A stretch of 64,000 nucleotides of DNA, from NCBI RefSeq assembly GCF_001653235.2, contig NC_035795.1, forward strand, positions 186,001 to 250,000, read 5' to 3'. Below, piece after piece: positions 16,006 to 38,984 of the stretch. A program made the translations under genes and the position numbers. The notes under the pieces are model-generated. The model saw only the letters and a list, made by a program, of their open reading frames with translations. It was not told the origin of the DNA and made no database searches. Each line of letters starts with the position of its first letter. Position 1 is the first letter of the stretch. This DNA is from Pochonia chlamydosporia 170. Lineage: Eukaryota > Ascomycota > Sordariomycetes > Hypocreales > Clavicipitaceae.

Positions 16006-19000
16006 TCACACCCTCTTGGCTTGGGTCTTCTTCTGGCTCGGCACTCGAAAGACCCAGTAGAGTGTCAAAGCGATGCCAATGTTCGCAACAACATAGACCC
16101 AAACAAGTCCAAAATCTCTCCATCTGGTATCATAAGATATCCCAAAACGAGCCAAGAAGTCATTCGTGGTCGCGACAGGGCAGTAGCCACATATACCAAG
16201 CGCAGCCTCATCTAGCACGCGGCCGCCCATCTTGCTAGCGAATGGTCCGAGGAATTTGCCACAACTCATTCCATCTGCAGGTGGTGCAATGCGCAATACC
16301 TCGTAGTCAGCACAAGTAATGTTATTGTGTGCGACGGCGGTGGACATGATGCCTCCCACCAAGTACGTAGCAGGAGAAGCCCGGTACATGAAGGTCCAGA
16401 ATCTGGGGAGGTCAACCTGCGGTACACTGATGCCACAACAAAGGATGCAGAGTGTCCATAAAAATGTTATGAGAACACCAGCAGTCTCTGGAAGATCCAT
16501 CCACATAATGGCTGCATGCGTAATGGTGCTGGTAAACAGCAAGTAGACCCAGAGAAAGAGGAACACGAGGAAGCCTCGGACTGTCTGGTCATCGCTTGTG
16601 GTATTTCGGAAGAAGCCCACGGGATAGTACCAACAAAAGTACATGATGACCGCCATGAGCGAATTCCAGAAGATCTCAATCAAGATGTTGGCAAGCACGT
16701 ACGTGGCCCATCGGTAGATCTTGGACGGCCTCTCCCGTGCCTCGTAGAGGTTGCGTTGCGGCACAAACATGGGCATGATCTGCTCACTGATGTTGAGGAA
16801 GAGCACAAGAAACATGAAAACGGCCCATAGCTGGTTCTGCAAACCTTGGATAGAGTTGTTTGCGCTATAACTGAAGCCGAGATACAAAGACTGTCACAAA
16901 TAGCATTAGTTGTGGGTTTCAGACTGCAGAACAAGAAAAAAAAAGGCTTCTACACCAATACTGACCGATAGTGTGATCAAACCAATCTTGGACCACATGT
17001 ACACGGGGGACCTCCAAAAATGCTTCGCTGTTCGAATCAAGACTTCTCGAAACTGAGTAGCGAAGGAAGCAACGAACTCTTGATGCTGCGACTTTTCGCT
17101 GCTACGTCCTGCTGCATTAGTTTCTGTCAAGCGTAAACCTCGCAGACGGGCCAGCTCTGTCTTTACACCCTGATATTCTGGAGAATTTCTCCATGTTGCA
17201 TGCCAATCTACACCTTCGGACAGATTTTTTTGCGGCTCAATGACTTTCAGCATCCATTCAGCAGGGTTCGCACCAGGTAGGATTGGCGTGGCACCACTTC
17301 GTTCAAAATAGTCAATCAACGTGGATGAATGCTCGCCCAAGTCTGCGTTTCAGGTCAGCAGCAGAAATATCCCGTGGGCAGACTGCCTCGCCACTTACCA
17401 CCAAAATAAACAGTTTTACCGCCCGGCGCAATGAGAAGTAACCGATCAAACTGATTAAAAAGCATCGCTGAGGGCTGATGGACGGTGCAGAGGACTGCCT
17501 GCCCGGAGTTGGCTAGTTTTCTGATGAGCACGGAAATGGCCCATGATGTTTGCGCATCAAGACCTGAAGTCGGCTCGTCAAAGAAGATGAGTAGCTGAGG
17601 ACGAGCAGCAAGCTCCACGCCGATTGTGAACCGCTTTCTCTGTTCGATGTTGAGCCCTTGGCCGGGGATGCCAATGATGGCTTCTGCAAAGTCTTGCATT
17701 TCCAGTACTTCAATGACGTGGTCGACATATCGAAGCTTGTCACTGCGCGGCACTTCGGCTGGTTGTCGTAGCACCGCACTGAACGTCAGAGCCTCACGTA
17801 CCGACATTGTAGCCATGTGAAGATCTTGCTGCTGTACGTAGCCGACTTGGTGCTGGAAAGTAGCGTCGGTGGGTGTCCCGTTGACCAAGACGTCGCCAGA
17901 CACGACACCCAAGGAAACACGACATGCCAAGGTGTCCAGTAGTGTGGTCTTTCCAGCTCCAGAAACACCCTAAAAAAAATGAACAAACGAGTCAATCAGC
18001 AATGAATCAACGACAAGCTGACCCGAGGCAGCAAAGCTTCAGTCCAGACACGAACTCTAAGCAGCAATAGGATAATACATACCATCAGAACAGTGGAAAC
18101 TCCAGGCTTGACCCAGCCGTCGACATGATCGAGCAACTGGCGTTCTTCCCCTTTGACCTTGATGGAATAGCAGAGGTCCTCCCAATGGAAAGCTTGTGTG
18201 GTGGCGGCGAGGGGCTTGGTTACATTCCCATCAGAGCTGGCCTCATGGTTGACAATGTTGCTCTTCTCTAGTCGGGAAGATTGGCTGCCCCTGGATGACT
18301 GAGCAGTCTCCAGATCAGACCGAGGCAGAAAAGAATCCATCAAGCTACTACGGGATGTTCTATGACTTCGTCGGAAGACAAGGACCTCGCCCTTTGTCTT
18401 TGGTGGCCGTGCCAACTCTGCGGCCAGGAGATAGGCTGCAAAGAAAACGACGGTGAATGCACAGAGTATGCCAACATTCCTCCACTTGTGATCATTCCAG
18501 TAATCGAACGACAGGTTTATATACCGGTCGCCATTGACAACAGTTGACCCGGGTTTGGCCCCCACGACGGCGCAAATCCGGGATCTCGCAGGCAGCCGTT
18601 CGTATCCACGACCCCGAGGCACTATGCTTGAACATGCAAACTCCCTACCATGAAACTCGTTCGCCATGAGCGCCTCAAAGGAATAGGCCAACGGATTGAT
18701 ATAGGTCATCCATCGCGACCAGCCAGGCATGTAAGCAGTAGGGATGGTGAAGCCCGTGTAGATCATAAGACCGAAGCTGATCACAGCGCTAGGTATCATA
18801 GCCTGGGCAGATGTTCTCGCGATGCTGGCGAGGGTTCGAAAGATGGCCGACAGGGAGAGAGTCGCCAGCAGAGAGACCAGGCAGAAGAAGAAGAAGGCGC
18901 CGGGCCCACGCCGCAAATGAGCCATGAAATAGACAAGAATGTTGAACACAAACATGTTGACAATCTTGTAGGGAATGTCGCACAAATAGCTGGCTATTGC

Positions 19001-20829
19001 CTGTGCTGATTGACGGTGGAAGGCGTACCGGTTATGTTTCTCTACAACTGGACGCTCGGCGTAGAGAGTGAGTACCTCTAGCTGGCTGGCAAATGCATTG
19101 AATAGGAGCGAGAAGAATATAGTTCCTCCACGGTAGTAGAAGCTGGAGGAGTTGTTGGGGAGGTTGTAAAACATGCTGCCCAGAATGAGAGCTACGATGA
19201 GGTTGAACACCAAAGATACGATTGTGAAGCCAGGGTCAGCCAAAAGCCTCCTCCAAGCACGCCAAAAGGTCAGAGAAACCTGACGGTAGTAGGAGATGGT
19301 GTAAGGGGAGCTGTGGCTCTGGGACTTTGCCTGCTCAGCATGGCGAGACTCTAGATACTCGCTTAGCCTGTGCTGCACAGGATGCTTGTTTTCATAGCTG
19401 TTCAGTCTGTGCTGCAATTCCCGCCGCAACTTGCTGGAGCGCCACCACAGTGCAAAATCGTCGGCCGTGCGAGGCGCCAGATTCTCAAACCCGGCTTTGA
19501 CAGTACGCTCCAGCGGACTTGTCATGGAGGTCAAGAAGTCCGGAACGGTCTGGCGTTCCGGGCAAAGAAACCCCAGGTCTTCAAAGTATGTCTTGGCCTC
19601 GGAGCACTTCCCAAAGAAAATCTGCCTGCCTTCGTAAATGACGGTAACGAGATCGAACAAGTCGTATGCTGACTGGGGAACTTGGTAGAGCGTCACCGCT
19701 GACGTGGTGCCCAAAAGGTCGGCCTGCCGGCGTAAATTCTGACAAAAGTTGACGGCGTTGGCACTATCCAGACCGCGAGTAGAGTTGTCCCAGCATTGGA
19801 ACTTGGCGTTTGTGAGCGCTGCTTCGGCGATACTGACTCTCTTGCGCTCTCCGCCGCTTACACCGCGAACAACATCGTCGCCCACTCGAGTGTTGGCGGT
19901 ATGCGTCAATCCGAATGTGGCCATCATGGCATCGCGTCGGAGAACATCGAACTGTTGGCGGGTGAAGCCTTGGGGAACATGTCGAACGGAACGAGCACAA
20001 CTTGCGAAGAGTAATGTTTCGTTGACTGTGAGGTGGGCAAGGTGCGAGTCGAGTTCTGCATTGTAGAGAACATCGCCGCGGAGAGAGGAACGAATCAGTT
20101 TCGGATCGATTCCTAATCCATCACATTGACATCACGCTAATCAGCTTTTCTTGAGTCATTCCCCGGAATGAGCGCACGTAAAGGAACAAACATACCACGG
20201 TAGTTGATATAAGCGTCTGGGGATAGTTCTAGGTCTGCCGTTTGCGAAGACAATGTCTTCAGAAATGTTGAGCAGCCAGAGCCAGGAGGGCCAAGAACAA
20301 GCAGCATTTCACCATCCTCAACGATGCCTTCAAAATTTTGTAAGATATCTACTCGTCTGCCTCTGAAGCCGCTGCCGGAAGCCAACCTGGCCAGTGATTT
20401 TGCAATGCCAATCAAAACGTTTCCGGTCGATTTTTGAAACTGTGCTTCAGTTATCCAGCCAAACACGGTCAAATTTCTAAACGCTACACCTAGAGATCGC
20501 TGCGAAGCAGACCTCCGGCCTGACTCTGTGAGCGCTGCAACCCTCTTCATCCATGCCGTCGGGTCAAAGTTTGGTGACTTGGGATCCAGGTTGCTGCCCT
20601 TATGAGGTGCGGTGTTGCTTTCGGTAGTGTAATTCGACAAAGAAGGCGCAATGGATCTTTGGACTGGAGTTTGCTGGGGAGGGCTCTGGCCTGAAGAAGC
20701 TCTCTGGTTCACATCCTTGTCTCGATCAACTAAAGTAGAATGTGAACCCTGGGAGCTAGACATTAATGTCATATCTGCTACTTTGCCATCAAAAATGTGT
20801 TCTATATGTTTGTTACTGAACTTGTACAT
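16006..20829 (-). CDS. PDR-type (ABC-G) multidrug ABC transporter
   Basis: A full-size plasma-membrane exporter with the (NBD-TMD)2 layout. Exons 20196-20829, 18083-20112, 17399-17969, 16966-17342 and 16006-16890 join in phase to 1498 aa, the usual length. NBD1 has the PDR-type degenerate Walker A with Cys in place of Lys (G-P-P-G-S-G-C-S-T, about residue 180), a good signature V-S-G-G-E-R-K-R and Walker B ending [12 protein letters not shown]2 has a canonical Walker A (G-V-S-G-A-G-K-T-T, residue 889), a degenerate signature L-N-I-E-Q-R-K-R and Walker [11 protein letters not shown]. Each half ends in six helices. The start could also be Met20 or Met23. Its place beside a polyketide locus suggests export or self-protection, though PDR genes also occur alone. 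Confidence 0.92.
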
Positions 20830-22313
20830 GGCGGATTGGAAGTATCAATGGGTTCCTGGATACGTTATACGACGCGGCGGAAAAATACATGTGCATATAA
20901 ATACATATATCAGGATATGACGTCGTCGAGGGCTACAAATTGAGACGCGGAGTTTATCAGTGTAACCGTGCTGGAATTTGGATTGTGCACTGATATAGAT
21001 GCAGTCCCTGTCCACTTGCTTATATGCTTCTCTCATTGTGGCTATGACATCCTCCCTTTTTGTATATGTATTGTTGACACCTTAATGACATACATACACC
21101 TGTCTTATTGTATTCAACTGTGGTAGGAGGTCACAAGTATTTGTCTACCATATTACGGATTAATCGCTTCAATATGGCAAATACTTCTGATCATAGGTTG
21201 TAAGTATATAGCTTTCTCCACGAGTCGAAGTAACAGAAATACAGAGAGAGCAAGGCCATAGAGAGAGAGAGAGAGAGAGAGAGAGAGGCCTAGCATACTT
21301 TCCTGACGTCTCAGTGGAAGGCACGGATCCTGTGTCTCTCGGGCTAGCTTCTGTGAACTTCCGCCTTCAGACCCCAAGGCGGTGGCGCCAGCAGTTAAAG
21401 CCCGATTGGTCTTTGGATGTGCAAAGGATCTTGGACCACATCGTATGTCAACTCATGTCATCAGACCATCTTCCTGCATCAGCGGAGTGTTGCATTTGCT
21501 GGTTAAGTGACCTAACGGACATTTTCCTTTGCCAAAGTACATGATCTGAAGAATTATGTGAGGTAAACATATGGACATGGTTGAGTTACGTGCCCCCTAC
21601 ATTTTTACGACGGACCATTTGATCGGAACTCGGCTGCAGTGGGGATCGAACTGGTCATTTATCAAAGAACGTGACCACTAGATCATTTCAGTAAAGGGCT
21701 ACGCTCGGTCGATGTGGGGAGATCGTACAGGTTATATTCTGTTGACATCATTGCTTCATGTTGCACACAATACAACCAGAATAATCCACTCTTAAATCGG
21801 AGTTGTCCCTTTTTGGCCGAGTGATGTATTGTCTGTGACACTTCATGCTGGCACTACCCAACGCATCAGACTTAAGAAGACTTGAATGACTTCAAATGGC
21901 GGTCTTACTCAATGAGTGGATGCAGTTAGAGACTTGACGTTTAAGGAACATTGACATGTCAACTACCACGAGGCACGGACTTGGTGGGGATTTCCAACAG
22001 GGAGGCAACATTGCAGCCTGTCAATTTTGTGACGTATGTAAGTTAAGTTTCAAAATGACAGACCGGACTTATTAGCACAACAGACTTGAGTCATCACACT
22101 CCGCAAGACTGTGCTGCAGCTCTCTGAAGTGCGGACTTACAGACGTCAACCCCAAATAGCGGCGTTAACTTATCACGCCTGGATGATGATACGAAGAAGA
22201 TGCGGTGAGTGTGCAATGACAGATATAAATACGATGGTGGGCAGTCAAGCTATAATGGTGAACAAAAAGACAATCAAAAGCACATGTCGTATCTCAAAGT
22301 CTGAATCATCCGG
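20830..22313. other. Intergenic with an AG microsatellite
   Basis: About 1.5 kb upstream of the ABC transporter and downstream of the alpha-oxoamine synthase relic. Apart from the AG tract at 21260-21287 I see no gene or motif. Confidence 0.5.
21260..21287. repeat. (AG)14 microsatellite
   Basis: Uninterrupted alternating AG/GA tract of 28 bp about 430 bp upstream of the ABC transporter start. Confidence 0.95.
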
Positions 22314-23511
22314 CTACTGTCCCCAATTCATGTTCACTTTGGCAACCACGGAATTTGTAATGTGCGCCACCGCGCAGAGCTTGACTTCATAGCCTGGTCT
22401 ATTCAGGCGGTTTTGTGCTTCGCATTCCATTGTCTCTTTTGCCAAGTTGCAAATGGATTCGTCCAGACTTTTCACCTCATCATCCGTATTGTGCACATGA
22501 AAGACGAGGGCGAATTCTGTTTGTGCCCTTTGGGACGACAGGGGCGCACACGCAGAAGCCGTCTATCTACAAATGAACGGCGAGATAGAGATTGTGCTTG
22601 GGCTTTATAAAAACAGGGCAAATATGAGTCACAAAAGGAAAACGGTTCCAATCATCTTTTGAAAGGGGAATACGCACGGTATCATAATCGCTAGCCTTCT
22701 CCCAGACCGGGTTCTCAGTGATGATGTACAGAAATAGCTTCACCAGGTGCTGCATCTTTTTCTTGTCCCCAAGGTGCACCGTGTACGTTGTCCAAGACAT
22801 CATCTTTAGTTTACTATTGGTCAGAAAGGAGCTTACTTGTTAAGCTCTGAGTAGGTAAGCCACATGGGTGAATACGGCGGCAAGGAACCCTGGGCTCTCG
22901 AGTAAAGCACAGATCTTGTGTTGTTCATGAACATGCTTCTTACTGTTACATTGGACGGAATGGCAGCTTACGTTCCGGTCATTACGGAGTAGTACGATCC
23001 GGTTTTAGGAAGCATGGACCAGCCAGGGGTAACAGGAACACACACCTCTAGAGCCATCTACAGAGTTCCCGCACGTGTGGTTTCGGGCGGTGAGTGCTAG
23101 CATGAGTTAGTTCATCGTAGACGCTGGCCTCACCTGGCCGTACAGTGGTAGTAAAGACCGCATCGTTAGCCACAGCACCAGAGCCACGAAGCAGAGCCGA
23201 TTCTGCCCCAATATAGATAGATATACATATATATATCTATCTATATCGGGAACTCGGCGGTTTTCCTTTCCACCATATCGAGATCCGCAGAGTCTCCACC
23301 CAGCTGCCGTGCTCCATGCGATTCTAGCTGGAAGTCCGGATTTGCAGCGAGCTCCTCGAGAACGGCGGTTCTCACAGCCCCCGACTTTCCAAGACACACG
23401 GCGTCGCTCGATGAGAAGCTAATCAATGTGGTAAATGGCACAGAGAGACCTTGATCGGGCGGCGTCGAGCTCGTCTTCCATGATCCGATAGGAGATCGTG
23501 TCGTTTTTCAT
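22314..23511 (-). pseudogene. Relic of an alpha-oxoamine synthase (class II PLP aminotransferase; BioF/SPT/FUM8 family)
   Basis: Pieces of one family appear in order on the minus strand but in changing frames. Near 23511 a start-like segment reads M-K-N-D-T-I-S-Y-R. From about 23440, F-S-S-S-D...P-D-F-Q-L-E-S-H-G-A-R-Q-L-G-G matches the substrate-loop start of the family. After a palindromic insertion, G-S-G-A-V-A-N-D...R-P-G...V-Y-D-E-L-T-H-A-S matches the nucleotide/PLP region. The stretch that should carry the PLP lysine is missing or unrecognisable. From about 22880 come Y-S-R...S-L-P-P-Y-S and, in 22567-22803, T-E-N-P-V-W-E-K and F-V-T-H-I-C-P-V-F. A TAG (22567-22569) follows A-V-H-L, then V-P-K-G-T-N-R-I-R, an extra base in CCC (22508-22510) and H-V-H-N-T-D, the C-terminal hallmark. 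Intact members condense an amino acid with an acyl-CoA or acyl-ACP. It cannot make a working enzyme as read. Confidence 0.75.
23211..23246. repeat. 36-bp near-perfect AT-rich palindrome inside the relic
   Basis: Two 18-bp arms built of atag/ctat units pair at 17 of 18 positions. It interrupts the alpha-oxoamine synthase relic exactly between two conserved blocks and adds an in-frame TAG. Confidence 0.9.
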
Positions 23512-24458
23512 GCTGGGCACAGAACTTGCGCATTCGCCCACACTTCCACAAATGATCGAGATGCAACAGACATGTTTCTCTTATAGGTAATATTTCGGAG
23601 CCCTCAAACATCAAAGGTGAAGAGTAGAGAAACAAGAGAAAAAAGAACATTTTGACGAGCCTCGGGGGAAAGACGTAGGAGACGAATTCATCACTCTACG
23701 TTCTAGGATCACCAACTAGACAAGCAAATACCCTGAGTAATTGCTGATGCAGCATTCGTTCTTTCGTACGAACTCAGTCACAGTCGTGCGATTGGGATAC
23801 GATGACTCCTCAGAAATATCATCTCACACGAAAGCAACGTGTCCTTCGAAACTAGTCACACTATGCCGTCAACTGACTTGCTAATTCCCATTGTTCGCTC
23901 GCCGAGTGTTCGTGATGATGTTTGCCCTTATGCAGTTTGTTGTTTGTGTTTTCTTGTTGCTCTTGTTGCCGGCGCCCGAGACTGTCTCAGACATATTCAT
24001 CGAGAGTCTATGTGCAAGACACCGCGGAGCTTGGTCTGCGGTGGTTTGTTCAGAGTAATTTGCCGGGGATTCTCTCCAATACGACCTTTGCGCTCGGCCC
24101 GGATATTTGGTCAGTCTTATTCCGCATGTGATCTATCACAACATTACGTAGTTTGACAAACTAGACTTATATGCAACTTATAATAGCTCTAGACTGCTAT
24201 TGTAACAGCTTGCACACTGACTAAATACTTGCGGTGTGTGATAGTGGCCCAGGCGTTTGAGTTAATGTGTATTTGTATGACGTCTATGTACTTGTGCAGC
24301 ATATAGACGTATATATTGGCATTCTGTTGGATTTTTCTGCCCTGGATGTAGAAATGTATACCAAAATCCTTGGCTAGGACTGATCAGGTCACTGTATTGA
24401 ACAGTAGACAGATTTCAATTTTACCTTGTTCCAACATCACTTCCTTTAGCTCTCAAAC
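23512..24458 (+). promoter_or_regulatory. Upstream region of the polyketide synthase, with a possible transporter fragment
   Basis: Contains the PKS promoter. A 47-codon open frame at 23915-24058 reads a hydrophobic run followed by P-A-P-E-T and a charged tail, similar in shape to the end of MFS transporter proteins (x-P-E-T...). It has no other exon and is too short to call; it may be a relic or chance. Confidence 0.35.
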
Positions 24459-27400
24459 ATGTCTTTACTCCTACAGCCGTCCGGTGGGATTGCCTTCCCG
24501 CAAAATGATATAATGTTGGAGGATTTACCCTCGGCCCAAGATCCAAACGGGCTTCTCAGTGGCGGTGCTACTGTCAGTGATGATGCTGGTGCTCACTCAA
24601 TCGACGCCAGCAGCCACGCTAGAATCAATGATAATGAAACAAGCTGGCGTATAAACGGCCAAGCTAATATTACCAGTAATGACACTGATATTCACTCCAA
24701 CGGCGCCGACGGCCACGCCAGCGTCTATCACAATGGTACAACCATGAGCCCATCTTCTTCCACCAACATCCCTCCCAATCCTGGCTCACTACCCAGACCC
24801 GTGGCCATCTGTGGAATGGCTCTTCGGCTACCCGGCGGGCTGGAGAGCCCCCAAGAGCTCTGGGAGTTTCTCCTGGAAAAGGGCGATGCTCGATGCCAAG
24901 TTCCCAAGTCTCGCTACAATATCGATGCATATCACTCCAAATCTGGCCGGACCGGAACTATTGCCACCCAGTACGGTTACTTCCTTGATGAGAGCATCAA
25001 GCTGGGAGGTCTGGATACGTCTCGCTTTTCCCTGAGCCGAGCCGAACTTGAGGTCGCAGACCCGCAGCACCGACGGATGCTGGAGGTAGTGCGAGAAGTC
25101 TTTGATGACGCCGGCGAAATCGACTTCAAAGTGAGTTTCAAAGTATCGTTTCTTGACTTCATACAAGTATTGATCAACCGACTTAGTCCAAAAACATTGG
25201 CTGCTACATGGGGAGCTATGGTGAAGACTGGATGGAGATGCAAAACAGGGACCACCAACAGACTGGCATCAACAGGGCGGATGGCTACAGCGATTTCATG
25301 CTCTCCAGTCGAATATCATACGAGATGGATCTCAAGGGCCCATGGTACGAAGCCCTTCCCTTCTCATCCAGAAATACCACCGTTTCCCACTGGTCTCTCT
25401 ATATTGCGACTTTGGCCGCTGACTGAAACCCCTTTGTAGCATGACCATACGCACAGCCTGCTCAGCGGCTCTCATCTGCGTGAACGAGGCGTTCCACGCC
25501 ATTCAAACCGGGCTTTGTGATGGGGCCATCGTCGGAGGCTCCAACCTGATAATGGCACCGGGAATGACCTCCTTCATGACGGAAAAGGGCATCCTCTCGC
25601 CAGATGGCCACTGCAAGACCTTCTCTGCCGACGCAGACGGCTATGCCAGAGGCGAGGCCGTCACGGCCGTTTACATCAAGCCCCTAGACGCCGCCTTGCG
25701 CGATGGCAACCCGATCCGCGCCGTAATCCGCAACATCGTATCCAATAGCGACGGCAAGACGCAAGGCATCACTAAACCGAGCACCGAGAGCCAGGAGGCG
25801 CTGATGAGGAAGGCGTACCGCGATGCCGGCATTTCGGACTATTCCAAGACGGCCTTTGTGGAATGCCATGGCACTGGAACGCCTGTCGGAGATCCCATCG
25901 AAACCAACGCCGTCGCCAATGTCTTTGGCGACGCGGGCGTCTACATTGGCTCTGTCAAGCCCAATCTGGGTCACTCAGAGGGAGCATCAGGGTTAACGTC
26001 TCTGATCAAGGGGGTTCTAACCCTGGAAAACCGCATCATCCCTCCCAACATCAAGTTCACCAAAGGGAACCCGGATATTCCATTCGAGAAGAGAAAGCTG
26101 ACTGTTCCGCTGGAACCGACACCATGGCCACAGGACCGCTTGGATCGAGTGAGCATCAACTCTTTTGGCATAGGAGGATCAAACGCCCATGCCATTTTGG
26201 AATCGGCACAGGCGTATAATGTGCCAGAGCGATTTGCTCCTCTACATCAAGGTTCGCTTGATTCCCGGCCGCATCTGCTTCTCTTCTCGGCTGCGTCATC
26301 GTCATCTCTCAAGAGCATGACGGACCAGTTTAGGCCGTGGATGGAAAGGAACCCCGACAAGATGGACGATCTTGCATACACCCTTGCCATGAGAAGAGAG
26401 AATCTCCCCCACCGTTCATTCATGGTGGCAAGCCCGGGCCAGATTCCCGAGACGGCGTCTCAGGGCCGGCGGATAGGGAACAGTACACCTAATCTTGTCA
26501 TGGTCTTCACCGGCCAGGGTGCTCAGTGGCCTCGTATGGGTCGTGAGCTGCTCTTGCGCCAAGATTCCGTCTTCCAAAGCAGCATCAGGGCTCTCGACGA
26601 GTTTCTTGGCAAACTCCCTGATGCCCCTGAATGGACAATCGAAGAGGAGCTGCTCAAGCTGCCCAGGAAATCAAGGGTGCAAAGTGCAGAGCTATCGCAG
26701 CCGCTCTGCACTGCTGTCCAGATCGGTCTAGTCGATCTCTTCAAATCTCTCGGCGTTGAGCCGTACGCCGTGGTAGGTCACAGTAGTGGTGAAGTCGCGG
26801 CTGCGTATGCAGCAGGCGTGATCACGGCGAGAGAAGCCATCATCATCGCCTGGCAGAGAGGTCTTGCCGCCAAGCAACAGAGCCGCCTTGGTGCAATGGC
26901 AGCGATTGGTCTGGGCAGGACAGATGTCGAGAAGTTCTTGTCGCCGCCTTCCGTGGTCATTGCCTGCGAGAACTCTCCGGGCAGCGTCACCATCTCCGGA
27001 GACGCAGATGCCATCGAGACAACCCTCCGACGTATACACGAGGAGCTTCCCGACATTACGGCTCGTCTTCTCAAGGTCGATAAGGCATATCACTCCAACC
27101 ACATGGCTGAAGTGGGCGAGTTCTACACCACAGCCCTGCGAAGATATGTCCCCGACTTGTTTGACAACACGTCCACGTTGAAATCTCCCGAAACGAGATC
27201 CAAACGGCAGGCACTCTTCTTTTCCAGTGTCAGCGGCGCCGAGGAGCCAGCTCAGCTGAGTGAACTACGTGGCACCTACTGGCAGCGGAATCTCGAGTCC
27301 CCGGTGCTGTTCAGAAGCGCCATCCAGGCCGTTCTCAACAAGGTTTCCGATGCTGCCTTCTTGGAGATCGGCCCTCACACCGCCCTGGCTGGACCAGTAA

Positions 27401-30400
27401 GACAGACCGTGGCAGAGTCACCCAGTTCTTCAGACGGCGAGATTCCATACTTTGGAGCCATGAGCCGCGGTGAGAACTGTGAGGAGTCCTTCCTCGCCTC
27501 AGTCGGTCAACTATTTGAGCTCAACATACCTGTCGACTACAGCCGTCTTGTCCGAAAGACCACCTCACTCCCAGGACTTCCTCATTATCCGTGGGACCAT
27601 ACAGCAGCGAGCCTCTGGCGCGAGTCGAGGATTTCGCACGAATGGCGGCATCGCCAATTTCCTGCTCATCCGCTGCTTGGCATTCGCCAGCTCGAAAGCA
27701 CGACGCTGGAACCTAGCTTCCGTAACATGCTTCTCCTGAAAGATACGCCCTGGCTGCGGGATCACTGCATCGAGGGCAGCATCATTTTCCCTTGCGCGGG
27801 ATACATTGCCATGATCGGCGAAGGCATCAGGCAGATCACCGCAAGTCAGCCGCAGAAGCCGGCAGGCAAGGACTCAGACTCCTTTGTGATTCGCAACATG
27901 TTGCTCAATACAGCCCTCATCTTGCGAGAGGATACGACGATAGAGATTGTCACTACGTTCCGTCCTGTGCGACTTACCGACTCCTTGGACAGCACTTGGT
28001 GGCAATGGATGATTTCTTCGTATAACGGCAGCATCTGGACAAAGCATTGCAGCGGAGAGGTTACTGTCTCAAGCACCGAACCGGAGACTGCCCCTGATCC
28101 GAATATCGCCATGCTGCCGCGCAAGGTCGATCGTCGCAAGTATTACGACGTGCTGAACCGGGCCGGAATCTCGTACGGCGCAACGTTCCAGCGGTTGAAC
28201 GATCTCAGAACCGGAACTCTGGAAGGTATCGCTGCGGCATCATTAGATAACATTTCCTGTGGTGATGAAGAGCACTATAATCTGCACCCGGCCATTATTG
28301 ACGCCTGTATTCAGTCCGGGCCGGTGGCTGCAATGATGGGCAAGATTGAGGAGAAACACTACAGGAGAGTGCCTACGAAAATCGGTCGTATCGTAGTACA
28401 TCGCGTCGATCCAGATATGAATATGAACTTCAGGGCCGCTGCCTTTGCGTCCTTCGTTAAGGGTAGCAGCCAAGTCTCAAGCAGAATCCAGTGCATCAGT
28501 AATGGCAAAATCTTGCTCGATATGCAAGGCGCAATACTGTCTATGCTGGAAACAGACGATGCCGAAACCGCAGCCATTGCCGCCGAAGGCGAGGCGGACG
28601 AAACCATGAGAGGCTCTGACGCAGCACCAAAGGCATTGGCCGAGGATTTAATCACCAGCCGCTTTACTTGGGCGCCTCATATCGACTTCCTAGATTGTCA
28701 TAAGCTCATCCGGCCATCGATGCCATGGCATATTTACACACCCATGCTGGATGAGATGGCCCGCCTGTGCTTTGTCCTTACCAAGAGACGCCTGGGACTT
28801 ATGAAAGAAAGCAGCCGTATGAAGGAGACGCTTCCGGAGCAGCTGGTCAAATACATGACCTGGATCGATACACAAGTTCAAAAGGAACAAGATACTGCGT
28901 TGAAAGGACTTGACGACGCGGCGGCTTTGGATAGAATTGACGTCCTGCTCGGCCAAATGAGAGACACTCCCGTGGAAGACTGCGCTACCGCAATAGAGAA
29001 GGTGCTCAAAAACATCGACAACATCTTCACGGGCAGTACCGACGGGCTTGAGATGCTGCTAGCTGACAACACTCTTACCAACATCTACACCGCGACGGAT
29101 GCCAGCAACAGATCCGGGTTCATCAGCCACTTGGCTCACAGTAAGCCGAATCTACGTATCCTTGAGATTGGTGCTGGTACTGGCGCGTCCACGGCCAGTT
29201 TTCTGAAGCACTTGATATTACCAGTCGGGCATCCGTTGTACAGCAAGTATACCTTTACCGACATCTCGTCCGGCTTCTTTGTCGGGGCCAAGGAGCGGTT
29301 AGAGGGTACAAAAACTTCGAATATCGTGTTTTAGACATCAGTCGAGACCCCATAGAGCAGGGCTTTAAGGAGGACGAAAAGTATGACCTCATTATCGCGA
29401 CCAATGTGCTCCACGCCACCAAGAGTCTGCACGATGCGTTGTGCAACGCGCGTAAACTGCTCGACCACCGCGACGGGCGGCTGCTATTGCACGAGCTTAA
29501 CAGTCCTTCCAAGTGGCCAAACTACATATTTGGACTCCTTGCCGGGTGGTGGTACGGCGCTGCAGACGGAAGACCAGACGAGCCGTACGTGACTCCTGAG
29601 CGATGGGGGGAGGAGATGGAAAAGGCTGGCTTCGATGGCTTAGAGGCCGTAGTTCGGGATGCAGAGCAGCCGTACCAGCTAAATGCCACGATTCTCGCAA
29701 GAGCGAAGCCTCGTGTAAGCAGATATGAAAAAGAGGTCATCCTGCTACAAGATGACGAGAGCCTTGCATCGAATGCAATAGTACAGCGGCTCAACGAGAG
29801 AGGATATGGTGTGACGAGCCTGCGACTCGGCGACACATTGCCCGAGCAGCCACACGATATCATATCTCTTGTCGACACCACCCATCCAGTCTTTGAAGAC
29901 ATTGATAGCGGTCGCTTCGCAGCCTTCCAGAGCATTGTTCAGGCACTGAGCTCCTCCGGCGCCGGAATGCTCTGGGTGACGCATCTCTGTCAAGTCAACT
30001 GCAAAGACCCGCGGTACGCCCAAACCATTGGAACTGCTCGCACAGTTCGTACAGAGTCGCTCATCGACTTTGCTACTTGCGAAGTGGATGATGTTCACTC
30101 GTCGCTGGACAGGATTGTGGATGTGTTCGAGCGGTTCCGTGCCCGCCCCCGAGTTACCGACGAGCTGGATGAAGGAGATGCGCTTGATTTGCGCCCAGAT
30201 TACGAATACGCCATTGTGAACGGCATCGTCAGCGTTGGCCGGATGTTCCCCGTTTCGATCAGGGACGAGCTGTCGAAACCCCTCGTCAAGGAAGAGGTGG
30301 AACATGGGCATAGAGCCTCACACGAGGAGGCCAGGGTCGCTCTTGACATGACGAAGCCTGGCCGACTGAACACCTTGCACTGGAGAAGTGCTGCTGATGA

Positions 30401-32661
30401 TGGGGATGATGGTGGTGCGAAGGTTTTGAAGCCGGACGAGGTAGAGGTGAAGATTTTCGCCGCAGGTCTCAACTTCAAAGACGTACTTGGCGCTCTTGGA
30501 GTGATTCCGTATCCCGAAGATGGCCTGGGCCTGGAAGGTGCTGGAATTATTACCCGCGTTGGCGTTGATGTTACGGATCTCCAACCCGGAAACAGGGTTA
30601 TGTTCCTCGCAGACGGCTCCTTTGCCAGCCACGTCACCACTCCGGCGAAGCTCTGCGAAAGGATCCCATTGCACATGTCCTATGAAGATGCAGCATCCAT
30701 GCCGGCTGTATTCTCGACCGCCTTCGCCTGCCTGCTCAACATTGGTCAGCTGAAGAAAGGGCAGTCGATACTCATTCACAGCGCAGCCGGTGGTGTTGGT
30801 CTTGCGGCTGTTCAACTGGCGAAGATGGTGGGAGCAGAGATCTACGCGACAGTCGGCAACGACGACAAGGCCAACTACCTGGTACAGACCTTCGCAATAC
30901 CCAGGAACCACATCTTCAACTCTCGTAACACCAGCTTCGTAGAAGGTCTCATGAGAGAAACAGGCGGAAGAGGCGTGGATTTGGCCTTGAACTCGCTATC
31001 CGGAGAACTCCTACACGCGACCTGGCGCTGCGTGGCTGAGTTCGGCAAGCTCGTCGAGATTGGAAAGCGAGACTTTCTTGGCGGAGGAAAACTGGACATG
31101 GACGTCTTCCTCGGTAGCCGCAGCTATTCCGGCTTCTACCTGGACGCCGAAATGGCAAGGAGGCACGATGTCGTCAAGGAGTACGTTTTCTTTCTTCTCC
31201 ATTCTCGCTGTGTTTCGCTTCAATTTGCATGGAAAACGCGTTGCTTGCTGCTGACTGACTGACCTGGATAGTTTGCTTCATGACATAGTTGCCCATTTTG
31301 AACGTGGCCTGATTTCTTCGTTGTCGCCAAAGAAGGTCTTTCCCATGTCTTCCATCCAGGATGGATTCCGGCACCTTCAGCAAGGAACGCATATCGGTAA
31401 GATTGTCTTTTCTGTTCGCCAGCCCGATGGCAGTCTCAATCTCGACATCAAGAGGGTTGTCAGAAATAGAATGAGAAGGCTGCAGCTCGATCCTTCGGCT
31501 TCGTATCTTCTCGTGGGAGGTCTTGGAGGTCTTGGAAGGTCCGTAGCCAGACACCTCGTTGAGCAAGGTGCTCGCTCCCTGGTATTCTTGTCCCGAAGCG
31601 CAGGTTCTGGCGCCGAAGATGCCGACACAGTCCGCGAGCTCGAGGGCATGGGCTCCAAAGTACAGCTCATCAAGGGCAGTGTCGTGAGCGAGGAGGACGT
31701 AGTTGGCGCAGTCCAACAGGCGACCAACTTGAAAGGTATCATCCAGGCTTCCATGGTCCTCCGCGACGAAAATATTACGCGCATGAGTCTTGAACAATGG
31801 AACCAGGCTGTGGCGCCCAAGGTTCGGGGTACATGGAACCTTCACAACGCAACGGTCAAGGCCGGCATCGAGCTTGACTTCTTCGTACTCTTTTCGTCCA
31901 TGTCGGGCGTCACTGGTCAGGCCGGCCAGGCCAACTACGCAGGCGCGAATACCTTCCTCGACTCGTTCGTGCAGTACAGGACCAGCCTACAAATGCTCTG
32001 CTCTGCGATCGACATCGGTGCCGTACAGGACATCGGGTACGTATCACAAGACGAGGCTCTTCTCAAGAGAATGAAGGCTACCAGCGCGCATGGCATAACG
32101 GAAGAAGAACTCATGGAAACGCTGTCCGCTGCCATTCTCCTCCCGCGGTCAAAGGACGCAACGGACCAGGATCACACATACAGTGATAGGAACACCATCG
32201 GCCTCGGACTCTCGCTGAATGTCTCGCTCAGCGACAAGGATAGCCGCGCGTTCTGGCGCCAGGATAGGCGTCTGGCCGTGTATCACAACAACTCCAACAA
32301 GGCCAATGCCGATGGTGATGCAACGGCGAGCGGGGGCGACTGGTTGAAAACGTTTCTTGCGCGAGCTCGATCCGATACATCATTGTTAAAAACGGAAGAG
32401 TCGGCCAATCTGTTGGCCATCGAGATTGGGAAGAAGCTTTTCGGGTTCCTACTCAAGCCGGTTGACGAATTGAATACGTCTGCTCCGCTGTCGCAGCTGG
32501 GTTTGGACTCTTTGGTCAGCGTAGAAATGCGCAGCTGGTGGAGGCAGGCGTTTGGGTTCGACATTAGGCTTTTGGAGCTGTTGGGAATGGGGACTCTTGA
32601 TGAGCTCGGTAGGCATGCTGTGAAGGGCCTGCTGAAGTTGTTTGGTGATGATTCTTCGTAG
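24459..32661 (+). CDS. Highly reducing type I polyketide synthase, KS-AT-DH-MT-ER-KR-ACP (one frame break)
   Basis: An iterative PKS that would build a reduced, C-methylated chain; no release domain follows the ACP. Exons are 24459-25130, 25187-25344, 25440-31180 and 31272-32661. KS has C-M-T-I-R-T-A-C-S with the active Cys at residue 284 (R replaces the more common D), then H420 (E-C-H-G-T-G-T) and H455 (N-L-G-H-S). AT has G-Q-G-A-Q-W and G-H-S-S-G-E (Ser725). DH has H-C-I-E-G-S-I-I-F-P (His1052). MT has L-E-I-G-A-G-T-G-A (about 1518). ER has H-S-A-A-G-G-V-G-L-A (near 30778). KR has V-G-G-L-G-G-L-G-R and S-S-M-S-G...G-Q-A-N-Y-A-G-A-N. ACP has L-G-L-D-S-L, its Ser codon at 32509. All domains keep catalytic residues, but the frame changes by one base at about 29304 (GGG), 45 residues into MT; without correction the protein stops at 29334. 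The exons sum to one base short of a whole number of codons. The N-terminal 110 residues are low-complexity. Confidence 0.93.
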
Positions 32662-34403
32662 AAGAGTGCTATGTCAATCGAGTACCAGCATGTGCATCCC
32701 GGGGCCGTCCCATTACGCCCAACAATAATGTGTCAAGAAATGGCCCGAGCCAATTCGAGAGGCAAGTACGAGGCAGTAATGTCGAGATCATACGCTCAAC
32801 TAGGCTTAGGCAACTGGTTACATTCAGGCGAAGCAGTTCGTGAGGTAAGGCTCAAGCCTCAGTGACGTCTCCGTGACACCTCATGATGTCAATCGACTGC
32901 TGCATATTTGTGATTTCGCGAGAATAGTTGCGTCCTGCGTGCTTGCGTTTACGCCAGGGAGATATACAAAGCATACTGAGTCATAGAGCTGAGAATATTA
33001 GCCAGCATCGTAGTAGTGAAAATACACATTCGACTTGCTAGCGCGAACCTGTGGGCATTAAAAAAATGAGAAGTCAAGGTTAATATTTGTAAGGTTATTC
33101 GTTGCAGCAAACTAGAGCCATGGTATTTCCTTTTAAAAGCCGGACGTTGATCCATTGATGCTGACTGGCAAATTATTATCTGAGAGGGTTCATCGCCGTT
33201 TATACAAGCCCCAATTTAACTGTGGATGCAGGTTCTCCTTGCAATAATTTCCTGTTTCTTGAGTCGAAGGCATCGCCGCCATGATCATATTCTAGATTGT
33301 ATGACTGGTTATTTTGGGTCCAGTCACCCATGCTCCTGGTTAGGAGACGTCGTAGGCCATGTGAGCAGGATAGTTGATGAGAAATATGAATGAGCTTATG
33401 GACGGCCAGTCATTGATTGCCCGACTATATGTCATGCGTAGTGTGAGATTCGTCGATTCCTAGTGCCTGTGCATAAGATGGAATCATCTGGATTCAGGTC
33501 TTGGGACAGATTCCTGGCCTTGTGCTCGATCATTTAGCACATCGCGTTTGCTTCCCATGGGGTTGCAAAGTCTAGATTAATCTCAGCAATGGAGAGTAGA
33601 GCCATCGGAAGAACGCCTCAGGTGATGCAACTTTCGGGCAACTATCGTCTGTGAGTCTCGAATGCCTTCAATGTTGGTCAAAACATTTGCCAGGAAAAGG
33701 GGAAAGAGCACCAGACTTTGACATCAAATAGCACGGGTCAGGGCTGCAAATTGACCCGCTGGTCTGCACTCCGCAAAAAGGAACCCTTCCAGAACAGAGG
33801 GGAACGTGGCATGACGTCATAAACCACGATGGAGGAAGGATGGCGGTCAAATTAATCCCATTGTATCTTATTGAGCATCAACACTGGATGAAATTAGTGT
33901 CCAATAGATCAGTAAACGGAACTAGTGGCCATGGGTAGAAGTTCATTATCTTGAGCACACATCCTAGCCATTTCAAGGCGCGGAATGTTTTCGACTTGTA
34001 GCTGGCAAGGAAGAGAGTTTGCACACTCCATATCTCTCTCACCTTGAAAAGCAGTAACGACTTTGATTGCATTCGAGTATATCAGCTTCGGCTCCAACAT
34101 GCTCGACGGCAGATCAACCAAGCTACCCCATTATTCTTTTCGAGTTTCGGTGCTTGTGCGCGGGTCTGTGGCATTTGATTCGATCGGTAGCTCCAATCCA
34201 TACCCACCACCCCTAATGCTTCTATTCCCAGAATGGGAACCAGACAACCAGAATGAATGACGGCTCCAGTTTTGTGCTACGGCCACTAGAGTCGGGGGGA
34301 AAGTGTTAGTAACACCAGACCCGGAGAAACTTCACACCCTTCACCGTGACCTCAAATTGTGAGACAAAGCCGGATTTTGTCTCAGCTGTGCAGTGCGGCG
34401 GCC
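32662..34403. other. Intergenic, no gene seen
   Basis: About 1.7 kb between the PKS and the DHA1 transporter. No open frame shows a family motif on either strand. Confidence 0.5.
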
Positions 34404-35956
34404 ATGGTACGGGAAAAGGCCCTAGAACGGGAGTCGGGCACTCAATCGCACTCGGTTTCAACGCATCTTACATCAGGGAATGCGCCGGAATGGTCTCGGC
34501 ACCCTTCCAATCCATTTAATTGGCCGCCGTGGCAAAAATGGGCAACCATGAGCGTAGCCGTTTGGGTTACATTTATTATAGGACTGAATGCGACCTCCAT
34601 CACAACAGCCTCTACCGAAATATCCTCCGAATTTGACTTATCGAATGACGTTATCGAAGTCAGCTTTTTACCTTCGACTGCGTGGAATGCAGCGGCAGCC
34701 CTCGGCCCTTTGGTCACCTTGCCGTTGATGGATACATATGGTGTGAGGGTTGGATATGTGGTATGCTTGACCTTATTTCATACCAAAACGGCTATATGCT
34801 TACGCTTCAGACCGCCTTTGCTCTATTTTGCATATTCCTCATACCACAAGCTCTGGCGAAAAACTTTGCAACTCTGGTGATATGCCGCGTGTTTGCTGGC
34901 GTTCTTGGCGGTACGCTGCAGAATGCTGCCGACGGTATTGCTGCTAATATGTTTCCATCTCACTCCGAGCGCATATTACCTTTGACTCTATATGTGATTT
35001 CCCTCCTCTTGGGTATTACTATGGGCCCTGTCTTGGGCGCTGTTGGTGATCCAATGACATGGCGCTGGTAAGTTGACTTGGGATGCATCGTCAAAGCAGA
35101 TTATACTAATCCGACCAGGATCATCTGGATTCAACTCATCGTTTGTGGTGCTTCTATACCTCTTGTCGTCATTTTCATGCGAGAGAATCGGGGTCCTGTT
35201 ATCCGTGATCGCTTGTGTCGGGCTGGCAAATTGCCTAATGAAACTGCGGAAGAGAAATCACCCGTTAAGCTTCTCACACAGACAATATCACGTAGTGCTA
35301 AACTTCTCACCACAGAACCAACCATCATATCCATGACCACTTGGTCTTCATTCACATTTGGCCTCATTTTCATCTCGACTCAGTCAGTACCCCTCGTCTT
35401 CACTGACACTTACGGCTGGTCCGAGACCAGTGGTGGTCTTGTGCAAGCCAGCATTGGGATCGGACAACTTTTGGGCTTCATGGCCTGTTTGGTACAAAAC
35501 AGAGTATACATAAAGAGTGCCGCTTCCAACAAGGCAGCTCCAGGGTCGCCAATCCCCGAGTCTATCTTACACCTATCGATCCCGAGCACAGCCTTTGCTC
35601 TTGCAGGCGGCCTTTTCATGTACGGTTGGGGAATCTTTCAGCCACATTGGATTGTGCTGGCGATAGGGCTGGGTCTTACTGGGTTTGCAATCATGACGGT
35701 TGTGCATGCTGCTACGATATACGTCACTGATGAGTATGCAGCTTGTGCCGCCAGCGCCATTGCAGCCGTGGCATTTGGAGAAAACCTCTTTGCGGCGTTT
35801 CTTCCTCTAGCAGCGAAGCCTATGTACTTACGGCTGGACTTTCAGTGGGCGAGCACGTTACTGGCTTTAGTTGCTTTGCTGCTGACACTGGCGCCTGTTG
35901 TGCTCTTGTGGAGAGGAAAGGTCAGGCATAACCGTATATCTGCTAGAGTAGCGTAA
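34404..35956 (+). CDS. MFS transporter, DHA1-like drug/metabolite exporter
   Basis: A 12-helix drug:H+ antiporter-type protein. Exons 34404-34760, 34811-35067 and 35119-35956 join in phase to 483 aa. N-P-F-N-W-P-x-W-x-K before helix 1 is the usual start of fungal DHA1 proteins, followed by the helix-1 S-S-E-F and the helix-2 P-L...D-T-Y-G loop, where the canonical D-R-x-G-R-R is reduced to D-T-Y-G-V-R. R-V-F-A-G-V-L-G-G and the antiporter motif region G-P-V-L-G-A in helix 5, then W-R-W, are present. An upstream in-frame ATG is not supported by motif. It follows the PKS and precedes the P450/regulator pair, so it may export the product. The degenerate loop after helix 2 is unusual because that loop normally gates transport. 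Confidence 0.88.
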
Positions 35957-36627: not shown

Positions 36628-38371
36628 TCACGCCGAAATGGTATCATCCATGCGTTCCATTGCTTTCGTCTCCTCCATTGCCTTTCTTAGCGCGCCCTGA
36701 TTTCGTGGAACGAAAAGGGCGCGGTATCGATGAGGCAGAGCAACGAGGCTCGTTGGGTCTGAGTTACCGGTGATGGGGTGACAGTCAACCGCATCGTATT
36801 TCTCAATACGAAAGCTGTTCAGGAGTCGCATGTACACGAGATATAACTCTCGGTTTGCCAACAAGGATCCCGCACACATGCGGTATCCAACTCCATATGT
36901 AAATAGAGGCGCATCTGGTTGCTCAAACCATCGCTCAGGGCGGAAGACATCTGGATCGTGCCACACTTCGCTATCTGCAATGGACTACGTTAACCTTTGG
37001 GTTTCCATGAAGCAAGGGGAAGAAAAAAGGAGGCAGTAGGGCCTTGGAGTTGTGTCACTCACCCATATTGCAAGCCCAAGCGTTCAGAAACACAACAGAC
37101 CCCTTAGGGATTGTGAATCCGTTATATGTTACAGCCTTCGTTGATGCACGCGGCAGGGCGAGCCTCAACACGGTAAAATATCGCAGCGACTCTTTGACCA
37201 GCGCGACGACGTAGGCGCACTTTTGATCATCCTCTTGATCACACATGGGGTGCTGCTCGTCATAGAATTTGCGTATTTCTGACACCGCCTTATCCTGAAT
37301 GTCCTGGTTTTGAGATAAAAAGGCTACAAACCAGGCCACTTGCGTGGTGACTGTGTCGAGGCCACCGGACAACATCGTAAGGCTTATAGAAGTAAGCTCA
37401 GCTTTGTTTAGTTTGGCATCCTCATCTAAGATGACGTTTGCTTGAATGCAAGGCTTGTAGGTGCCATTGGCGATGCGCTCATCAAGCCCGGTGTTTAACC
37501 TAGTCAAGTAGATGTCTCGTCGGCTGCGCATGTCTTTGGCTTTGGATGAATGCGTGTTGATCGGATTGAGTCGCAGCACGGGTATGTAGTCCTGAAGGTT
37601 TCCAGTCGTAGACCTGAATTTGCTGATTTCCTCCTCGACATGTGTTATTTCGTCAAACAGGTTGTCCTTTTGACTCTTGAGCCTGACGCCCCAGTTCAAT
37701 GTCAGGGCGAGCGAGAGAGACAGCCTCTGAATCATGGGCATCGGATCCGTAGGGGTCTTGCCCGCATTTCCGTACTCATACAACTCTTTGATAAAGTCAC
37801 GAGACTCAATATCGAGGTGTGATATGTAAGTTTGAATAGAAGGTTTGTTAAGTGCGGAGGCAGCACCTTTGCGCCGCCGTTTGAGAGAGTCGCTGTATGG
37901 CGACGTGCCAATTGTAGTTCCCGCCGTGTCGGAGAGAACCTGTCATTTATGTCAACGCTAAATGGTGAAATGCGATTCACGGATACAGAAAAAGCCTACC
38001 TTGTGAAACGTATAAAACTCTGGCCTAGAACTCATCGCCTGTGCGTTTTGTCCAAAGATGGATTTTGCGGCTGCTGCGGAATTCACCACAACAACGGGGA
38101 CATTTCCAAGTTGTATTTGGTATACATCACCAAACCGACGAGCCCATTCGCGATACTTTTCCGCTGCATTCACGCGAATATCCCAGAGATTTCCAATCAG
38201 TGGCAGCCCAGTAGGCCCCTTCAGTCCTCTAATCCGAGCATGGTATCGAATAACCTCGTTAACAATGATGTACAGGAGTGGCGCGAAGAAAAGTGTAATC
38301 GCAAGTCTGCCTAGGGTAAGATCTTGTTGCTGATGTTGGATGAAGGCAATCAGACCGGTAATCGACAGCAT
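36628..38371 (-). CDS. Cytochrome P450, CYP504-like
   Basis: A microsomal P450 monooxygenase. Exons 38000-38371, 37063-37939 and 36628-36974 join in phase to 531 aa. An N-terminal membrane helix (residues about 20-40) precedes the P-T-G-L-P-L-I-G-N hinge. Helix I has G-G-L-D-T-V, helix K E-S-L-R, the P-E-R-W segment follows, and the heme loop is F-T-Y-G-V-G-Y-R-M-C-A-G. The L-A-N-R-E-L-Y tail after the heme loop and the R-L-L-N-S-F-R-I segment resemble the phenylacetate hydroxylase group (CYP504). This family oxidises small aromatic acids, so it could be catabolic; next to a PKS and divergent from a regulator it could as well tailor a metabolite. The gene is intact. Confidence 0.88.
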
Positions 38372-38984
38372 GGCGACAATAATTCCTTGCGGCGAGGTAA
38401 CTTCGAAAGGCTTTGTGGAATTGATTACTCTGACTCTTAAGAGAAGATCCCTTTATATTAAGTGATAGCACAGTGGTTGTGCGGTTTCTGTCGGTCCCAG
38501 CTTTTACAATCTCCTCTGGGGATCGGGATGTGGCTCTTCTCTTACCCGAACTAAGAGCTCTAGCGTCCACCAACAGCTTGTATTGATCCCGGCTTGATAA
38601 GTTAGCTCAGTGGTCCTTAGAACAGGAGTGTTGACGTTAGGTAGTATCGGCAAGGTGGACTGAGTGGGTTGTTCGCAAAGGATGTGAAGATTTCCGACGA
38701 CACCTCATGCTGCCATTTTGTCCAGCCATTTCAATATTGATCACTGTCAACTTCACCCCGCACCTACAGTAACACTGGCTTGGCTCCTGTAATTCATGTT
38801 GTGTGACACTGTGGTTTGTCACACCCACCGAACTGGCGTCGGAACCTCGGAAATATTTCCGACTCCAGCTCCATAACTTCGCCCTTCACCCATTCCACCA
38901 ACTCGGCCACATCGTGCTGTCTGTTTTCTATCGGAAAGCAGCTGTGGTCGCAGACTGTGTTCCGGAAAGACAGAGACGGTCAGT
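38372..38984. promoter_or_regulatory. Divergent promoter, P450 / Zn2Cys6 regulator
   Basis: 613 bp between the two start codons with no exon. Holds the palindrome listed separately at 38847-38862, about 125 bp upstream of the regulator ATG and 475 bp from the P450 ATG. Confidence 0.6.
38847..38862. promoter_or_regulatory. Perfect 16-bp palindrome with CGG/CCG ends (candidate Zn2Cys6 site)
   Basis: The bases read tcggaaatatttccga, identical on both strands, giving CGG-N8-CCG. Gal4-type dimers bind such inverted CGG triplets. Its place beside a Zn2Cys6 gene suggests autoregulation; this is inference. Confidence 0.55.

What the first reader, a model, noticed from the sequence alone, without database searches (positions are those of the whole stretch)
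22314..32661. A polyketide synthase next to the relic of an alpha-oxoamine synthase, the enzyme pair of sphinganine-like metabolites
The minus-strand stretch upstream of the HR-PKS holds family blocks of an alpha-oxoamine synthase in the right order but in broken frames. In fumonisin and sphingofungin loci an HR-PKS with a methyltransferase domain and no release domain works with such an enzyme, which offloads the chain by joining it to an amino acid. Here a PKS of the same architecture, a PDR ABC exporter, a P450 and a DHA1 exporter remain. This suggests a locus that once made a sphinganine-like amino polyol and lost the off-loading enzyme, or now uses another. The link is by family and neighbourhood.
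Basis: partly seen in the sequence, partly recalled or inferred. Interest (0 to 1): 0.85.

Follow-up and report, generated by a model that had tools for sequence, protein, structure and literature searches.

The report
Polyketide synthase outliving its partner enzyme
In the nematode-egg fungus Pochonia chlamydosporia, a large polyketide synthase sits beside the wreck of the enzyme that in related fungi takes its chain off by joining it to an amino acid, so a pathway to a sphinganine-like compound seems to have been lost here while the big enzyme stayed almost whole.

Summary
On the minus strand, 22326-23573, lie the pieces of one single-chain alpha-oxoamine synthase (AOS), in order and nearly end to end; the closest intact AOS found (Moelleriella libera) matches with Expect 4e-50 and 3e-33 for its two halves. 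The relic has at least five frame changes, stops, about 105 missing codons and no PLP lysine. It is the partner of the neighbouring HR-PKS: of 165 AOSs compared, the three closest come from species whose PKSs are among the nearest to this one, on contigs of equal length, once with consecutive locus tags. The KS groups with those PKSs. From published work it is best called a SAM3-like sphinganine-analogue pair, not fumonisin or sphingofungin. No second copy of this AOS was found in the genome. The PKS (24459-32661) is itself flawed: its frame breaks once near 29,305, where the public annotation puts a 50-base intron over residues kept in 12 of 12 aligned relatives. Lesions are far rarer in the PKS than in the AOS, so it seems to have outlived its partner; substitution tests support this only in part. 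A new, decaying member of a known cluster kind.

The parts
22326..23573 (-). Relic of a single-chain alpha-oxoamine synthase, nearly full length, start at 23573
   Evidence: tblastn with P0268: residues 1-154 and 260-473 of 476, Expect 3e-33 and 4e-50; SphA hits
23250..23573 (-). N-terminal pieces of the relic (residues 1-113), in two frames
23207..23250 (.). AT-rich palindrome (two 22-base arms) at a frame change inside the relic
23090..23224 (-). Relic piece, residues 110-154, 69% identical to Moelleriella AOS; about 105 codons missing after it
22510..23094 (-). Relic pieces, residues 260-412, in two frames with stops; no lysine at the PLP-lysine position
22326..22508 (-). C-terminal relic piece, residues 413-473, 61% identical, frame changed against the previous piece
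24459..32661 (+). HR-PKS (KS-AT-DH-MT-ER-KR-ACP, no release domain); introns about 25131-25186, 25343-25440 and 31181-31271
29305..29354 (+). Place of the frame break in the MT domain; the public model P0001 calls these 50 bases an intron
16009..20844 (-). PDR-type ABC transporter, four intron-like junctions, no break seen; membership in the pathway untested
34350..35953 (+). MFS transporter (Pfam hit on 35072-35953); membership untested
36631..38452 (-). Cytochrome P450, N-terminal, middle and C-terminal parts present; membership untested

Best explanation
The locus is a decayed sphinganine-analogue (SAM3-like) gene pair: a PKS and an AOS transcribed away from each other across 885 bases. In the ancestor the PKS built a linear, reduced, methylated chain on its ACP, and the AOS, a PLP enzyme, released it by decarboxylative condensation with an amino acid, giving a 2-amino-3-keto backbone. 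In this lineage the AOS gene died by frame changes, stops, loss of about 105 codons (which in intact relatives hold the invariant aspartate and histidine) and loss of the PLP lysine. Shown: the homology and its order, the lesions, the orthology of the pair, the KS placement, and no second copy found. Inferred: the chemistry (from SphA/SphB and Fum8), the SAM3 label, and that the PKS stayed under selection for some time after the AOS died. Open: whether the PKS is now also dead or still works with another release route.
For: Relic homology. The three AOSs closest to the relic among 165 belong to Moelleriella, Byssothecium and Fusarium sp. NRRL 66182, whose PKSs rank 2, 11 and 8 in the PKS list (rank 1 is this PKS itself) and share contig lengths with them. 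Consecutive locus tags of PKS and AOS in three species: F66182_8712/8711, DL769_000149/000150, diail_5804/5803. KS tree: window with Moelleriella (85), 5-row group 99, 11-row group 98, 15-row group 98. Own genome: only the relic pieces match the SAM-type AOS closely. Lesions: at least five to seven frame changes in 1,248 bases against one in about 7.9 kb.
Against: The SAM3 label rests on species lists in Kim et al., not on sequences of that paper. No SDR was seen in the window (not a full search). The AOS pieces keep nearly the expected identity (67.2% against 69.4% expected with Moelleriella), so the loss is fairly recent. The AOS/PKS substitution contrast is significant with one outgroup pair (P 0.0009) but not with two others (P 0.87 and 0.17), and the PKS N piece shows a slight Pochonia excess with 9 of 9 outgroups.
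Confidence: 0.85

Rival explanations
1. The PKS is still used: after the AOS was lost its chain is released another way (a hydrolase, another transferase, or another AOS in trans), giving a product that is not the ancestral sphinganine analogue.
For: One lesion in about 7.9 kb of PKS against at least five to seven frame changes in 1.25 kb of AOS. Unique changes at otherwise invariant columns: Pochonia 10 and 12 in the two PKS pieces, Moelleriella 9 and 9. The splice model annotated for the public protein would keep an open frame.
Against: The frame break, or the annotated intron, destroys or removes part of the MT domain. No release enzyme stands next to the PKS: the nearest hydrolase Pfam hit among the ORFs scanned is at 59429. 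The other AOSs of the genome are distant (27-47%). The substitution tests are mixed.
Confidence: 0.2
2. The whole locus is dead: AOS first, PKS later by its frame break, and the rest of the PKS has not had time to decay.
For: Frame break near 29,305 over residues kept in 12 of 12 aligned relatives. Pseudogenised SAM and fumonisin clusters are reported in Fusarium (Kim et al.). Recent AOS loss.
Against: A single frame break can be an assembly error; no reads were available. PKS catalytic motifs look normal by eye.
Confidence: 0.5
3. The breaks are sequencing or assembly errors and the AOS is intact in the living fungus.
For: Single frame breaks are typical of errors; this may well hold for the one PKS break.
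Against: For the AOS: about 105 missing codons, no PLP lysine, and 9 unique changes at columns invariant in ten of the eleven intact AOSs aligned or all of them, against 0-4 in each intact one, are not read errors.
Confidence: 0.04
4. The relic belongs to a biotin AOS (BioF) or other housekeeping AOS copied there by chance.
For: BioF-like enzymes are the nearest primary relatives (47% for the genome's own one).
Against: The pieces are 50-67% identical to the Moelleriella SAM-type AOS in the genome search, and the three best of 165 AOSs are PKS-linked ones.
Confidence: 0.02

Closest known systems
SAM3 sphinganine-analogue clusters of Fusarium and others (Kim et al. 2020, PMC7376913)
   Same: PKS of the same KS group as F. 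denticulatum and Fusarium sp. 66182, which the paper names as SAM3 holders; single-chain AOS next to the PKS; no other cluster enzyme needed.
   Different: Here the AOS is a relic and the PKS frame breaks once; no SDR was seen; SAM3 identity is inferred from species lists.
SAM1 / sphingofungin cluster (SphA, SphB)
   Same: Single-chain AOS takes the chain from a PKS without thioesterase (PMC10936153, passages).
   Different: SphA-like AOSs rank lower against the relic (P0121 rank 83 and P0123 rank 112 by summed bits), and the A. fumigatus PKS P0113 lies in another branch with Hypoxylon and Myotisia PKSs (that P0113 is SphB is my guess).
Fumonisin cluster (FUM1, FUM8)
   Same: HR-PKS released by an AOS.
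   Different: Fum8 is an Lcb1-Lcb2 fusion and FUM1 lies outside the SAM1-SAM5 PKS clade (Kim et al.); the relic matches single-chain enzymes.
Pseudogenised SAM and fumonisin clusters in Fusarium
   Same: Loss of AT and PKS by lesions is reported, for example SAM4 in F. babinda and fumonisin in F. bulbicola strains.
   Different: Another genus; here the AOS is far more damaged than the PKS.

Membership tests
SAM cluster (Kim et al. 2020) | HR-PKS of the SAM-type clade | tested here: met
   KS tree, 15-row group (98) with three AOS-paired PKSs; the paper's 'Reducing Clade III' label itself was not tested
SAM cluster (Kim et al. 2020) | AT (alpha-oxoamine synthase) gene next to the PKS | tested here: met
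   Present as a sequence, divergent from the PKS
SAM cluster (Kim et al. 2020) | AT gene functional | tested here: not met
   Frame changes, stops, about 105 codons missing, no PLP lysine
SAM cluster (Kim et al. 2020) | SDR gene in the cluster | tested here: inconclusive
   No SDR family among the 31 window ORFs scanned with Pfam (smaller ORFs not scanned); the genome search scored 19 of 214 candidates. Eight SAM3 homologues lack it too
SAM3 | PKS orthologous to SAM3 PKSs | tested here: met
   Groups with F. denticulatum and Fusarium sp. 66182 PKSs; that these are the SAM3 ones is inferred from the paper's species lists
SAM3 | Glycine-type residue at the ALAS-83 position | tested here: inconclusive
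   Ala in the relic and Byssothecium, Thr in Moelleriella; my pattern found the site in 3 of 13 AOSs
Fumonisin cluster | Fused Lcb1-Lcb2 AT (Fum8) | tested here: not met
   The relic fits a single-chain AOS of 476 residues end to end
Sphingofungin cluster (SAM1) | AOS and PKS nearest to the SphA-type branch | tested here: not met
Any SAM producer | Makes a sphinganine-like product | not testable with these tools
   No chemistry available

The most novel reading that the evidence does not exclude
The PKS was kept by selection after its off-loading enzyme died, and now releases its chain by a different route: a natural switch from an aminated product to another one in a nematode-parasitic fungus.
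Probability: 0.2. Interest if true: 0.6.

Novelty: new member of a known kind. Interest (0 to 1): 0.38.

Why it matters
It places one loss of a sphinganine-analogue pathway within Clavicipitaceae: Moelleriella has an AOS without breaks in its record, Pochonia does not. It shows that the off-loading enzyme can go well before the synthase, which gives a clear test case for whether an orphan reducing PKS can be reused. It also suggests that the public model of this PKS contains a false intron, so a survey of annotated proteins would miss both defects.

Tried and rejected
Pfam and NCBIfam scans of the relic pieces were too weak to settle the question. RIP as the cause: rejected, TpA/ApT 0.32-0.85 and (CpA+TpG)/(ApC+GpT) 1.14-1.67 in 25 windows of 1 kb over 15-40 kb (the usual thresholds are recalled). 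A long-dead AOS: rejected, the pieces keep nearly the expected identity. An intron as the cause of the PKS frame change: judged unlikely, the annotated one covers residues present in 12 of 12 aligned relatives, and an earlier GT..AG stretch that I saw by eye would remove a conserved motif. The strict P450 heme pattern that I searched for found nothing in the window; Pfam does match the C-terminal part of the P450. A search of the genome for PKS paralogues with P0002 did not complete. The amino-acid substrate from the residue named by Kim et al. was not settled.
Full report
What was checked. The finding claims a relic of an alpha-oxoamine synthase (AOS) on the minus strand beside a highly reducing PKS. 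The window is contig C6:186001-250000 of a genome of 44.2 Mb in 49 contigs. The public protein that matches the PKS at 100% is 'polyketide synthase [Pochonia chlamydosporia 170]', on a contig whose length (3,224,313) equals that of C6.

The relic. Two open pieces, 23244-23507 and 23051-23236, match PDB 9pep 'Aminoacyl transferase sphA' at E 1.4e-8 and 3.3e-9, at consecutive chain positions. Pfam alone reached E 0.11. Two protein searches gave 165 different AOS proteins: the 120 listed of 5573 hits, and 45 new ones among the 120 listed of 5301 hits. tblastn of the first 120 found nothing at E below 0.01 in the window outside 21500-24460. Of all 165 given to tblastn, the best chains of pieces, by summed bits, came from P0268 (Moelleriella libera), P0264 (Byssothecium circinans) and P0276 (Fusarium sp. 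NRRL 66182). The Moelleriella alignment runs from residue 1 at 23573 to residue 473 at 22326, with Expect 3e-33 for one half and 4e-50 for the other.

How it is broken. The pieces change frame five times with one query (P0193), six times with another (P0153), and seven times if the matches of several queries are combined by eye. Four stop codons lie inside the aligned stretches, two of them in poorly aligned parts. About 105 codons (residues 155-259) are missing; in intact AOSs that stretch holds the invariant aspartate and histidine (D234 and H237 of P0193; their catalytic role is recalled). The position of the PLP lysine does not hold a lysine (the identity of that lysine is recalled from the family). 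An AT-rich palindrome lies at 23207-23250, where one frame changes. There is no RIP signal. The genome search with P0268 found six relic pieces (50-67% identity); all other matches were weaker: the AOS beside bioB (47% and 34%), and those that I read as LCB2 (30%), HEM1 (31%), LCB1 (27%) and the fused AOS on C4 (28%, 21.9 bits) (names by my reading). So no intact SAM-type AOS was found elsewhere; the tool scores only its best candidates.

Why it is the partner of this PKS. Among the 120 listed of 6531 hits, the PKS is 75% identical to that of Moelleriella, 73-75% to three Claviceps species, 67-69% to four Fusarium species and 59% to A. niger group proteins. P0002 and P0268 share a contig length (71,904), as do P0008 and P0276 (43,240; tags F66182_8712 and F66182_8711) and P0011 and P0264 (195,929). 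Consecutive tags also occur in Monosporascus (DL769_000149/000150) and Diaporthe (diail_5804/5803). I keyed the contig length of 99 of the 119 PKS hits other than P0001; five had none and 15 environmental ones were left out. Of the 99, 16 share a length with a listed AOS. On contigs of megabases that is weak evidence of adjacency, and a missing label means nothing, because the AOS lists are cut at 120. The KS tree held 94 of the 119 hits (over 2000 residues with a KS match over 380 columns), the window, and 11 of 12 other KSs fetched from this genome out of the 51 exon-level matches. The window pairs with Moelleriella (85), in a 5-row group with three Claviceps (99), an 11-row group (98) and a 15-row group (98) that holds three AOS-paired PKSs. 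The genome's other KSs fall outside, on long branches whose exact place is unsure.

Which known kind. Of Kim et al. 2020 (PMC7376913) I read the abstract, sections 5-9 and 14, and passages found by term. They define SAM clusters by PKS, AT and SDR genes, list F. denticulatum as a SAM3 and SAM5 holder and Fusarium sp. 66182 as a SAM1, SAM3 and fumonisin holder, say that SAM3 has no further known enzyme genes and that eight SAM3 homologues lack the SDR, and report pseudogenised SAM and fumonisin clusters. Proteins of SAM5 holders (F. mangiferae P0108, Fusarium sp. NRRL 52700 P0100) lie in another branch, so P0007 of F. denticulatum, and with it this PKS, is best called SAM3-like. That is an inference; the paper's supplements were not open to me. 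Of Proctor et al. 2026 (PMC12821873, fumonisin and AAL clusters) I saw the abstract and passages; its main text has no mention of Pochonia, Moelleriella or Claviceps. Searches that joined Pochonia with polyketide, sphinganine-analogue or pseudogene terms (listings only) showed no title or abstract on this locus; they cover only the open library. Passages of PMC10936153 support the release chemistry: SphB has no recognisable thioesterase, and SphA condenses the chain with aminomalonate.

State of the PKS. Three GT-AG introns fit. Near 29,305, in the methyltransferase domain, the frame changes. The public model P0001 bridges it by an intron at 29305-29354 that removes about 17 residues, which 12 of 12 aligned relatives possess. 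I judge this a frame break (mutation or assembly error) with a false intron in the annotation; reads would decide.

Did the PKS outlive the AOS? Lesions: seven frame changes in 1,248 bases of relic would predict about 44 in 7.9 kb of PKS, where one is seen (P of at most one 2.6e-18); with five the prediction would still be about 32. Several lesions may stem from one event, so these figures overstate the contrast. Substitutions: against Moelleriella, the PKS N piece shows a slight Pochonia excess with 9 of 9 outgroups, chi-square over 3.84 in one (4.47); the C piece shows one with 5 of 8 (largest 1.2). The AOS pieces show an excess in 10 of 10 comparisons, chi-square 2.28 to 15.51, over 3.84 in 9. 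Compared directly, AOS and PKS differ at P 0.0009 with one outgroup pair but P 0.87 and 0.17 with the two others tried. Unique changes at otherwise invariant columns: PKS pieces, Pochonia 10 and 12, Moelleriella 9 and 9; AOS pieces, relic 9, intact rows 0-4. As a control, C. sorghi's PKS evolves faster than Moelleriella's (chi-square 7.09-23.82), so a mild PKS excess need not mean decay. Against a long-dead AOS: over 15 of the 16 co-located pairs (105 comparisons, not independent), the relic keeps 67.2% identity to Moelleriella where 69.4% is expected (z -0.36); for the other 14 species z runs from -2.13 to +0.48. So the AOS died fairly recently, and the PKS has been hit much less.

Neighbours. 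A PDR ABC transporter (16009-20844 minus; four intron-like junctions, no break seen), an MFS transporter and a P450 flank the pair. Nothing here shows that they belong to the pathway.

Verdict. This is a decayed SAM3-like gene pair in Pochonia chlamydosporia: new as a locus, ordinary in kind. The surprising part is that the PKS appears to have outlasted its off-loading enzyme.

Noticed in passing
G000:C4:922973-930694 (L035, L016, L017, L020): A second sphingolipid-like gene group on another contig: fatty acid hydroxylase, short-chain dehydrogenase, a two-part AOS (LCB2-like part then LCB1-like part, by my reading) and an NRPS condensation domain. The fused AOS recalls Fum8, but no KS match lies near it.
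   Followed up: partly
window 29305-29354: The public protein model P0001 splices out 50 bases that code for residues conserved in the 12 aligned relatives; probably an annotation artefact over a frame break.
   Followed up: partly
window 23207-23250: AT-rich near-perfect palindrome of two 22-base arms inside the AOS relic.
   Followed up: no
window 43022-64000: Copper amine oxidase, amino acid permease, zinc alcohol dehydrogenase, FMO, Zn2Cys6 regulator, sugar transporter, alpha/beta hydrolase, AMP-binding enzyme and thiolase: looks like catabolic genes rather than the PKS cluster.
   Followed up: no
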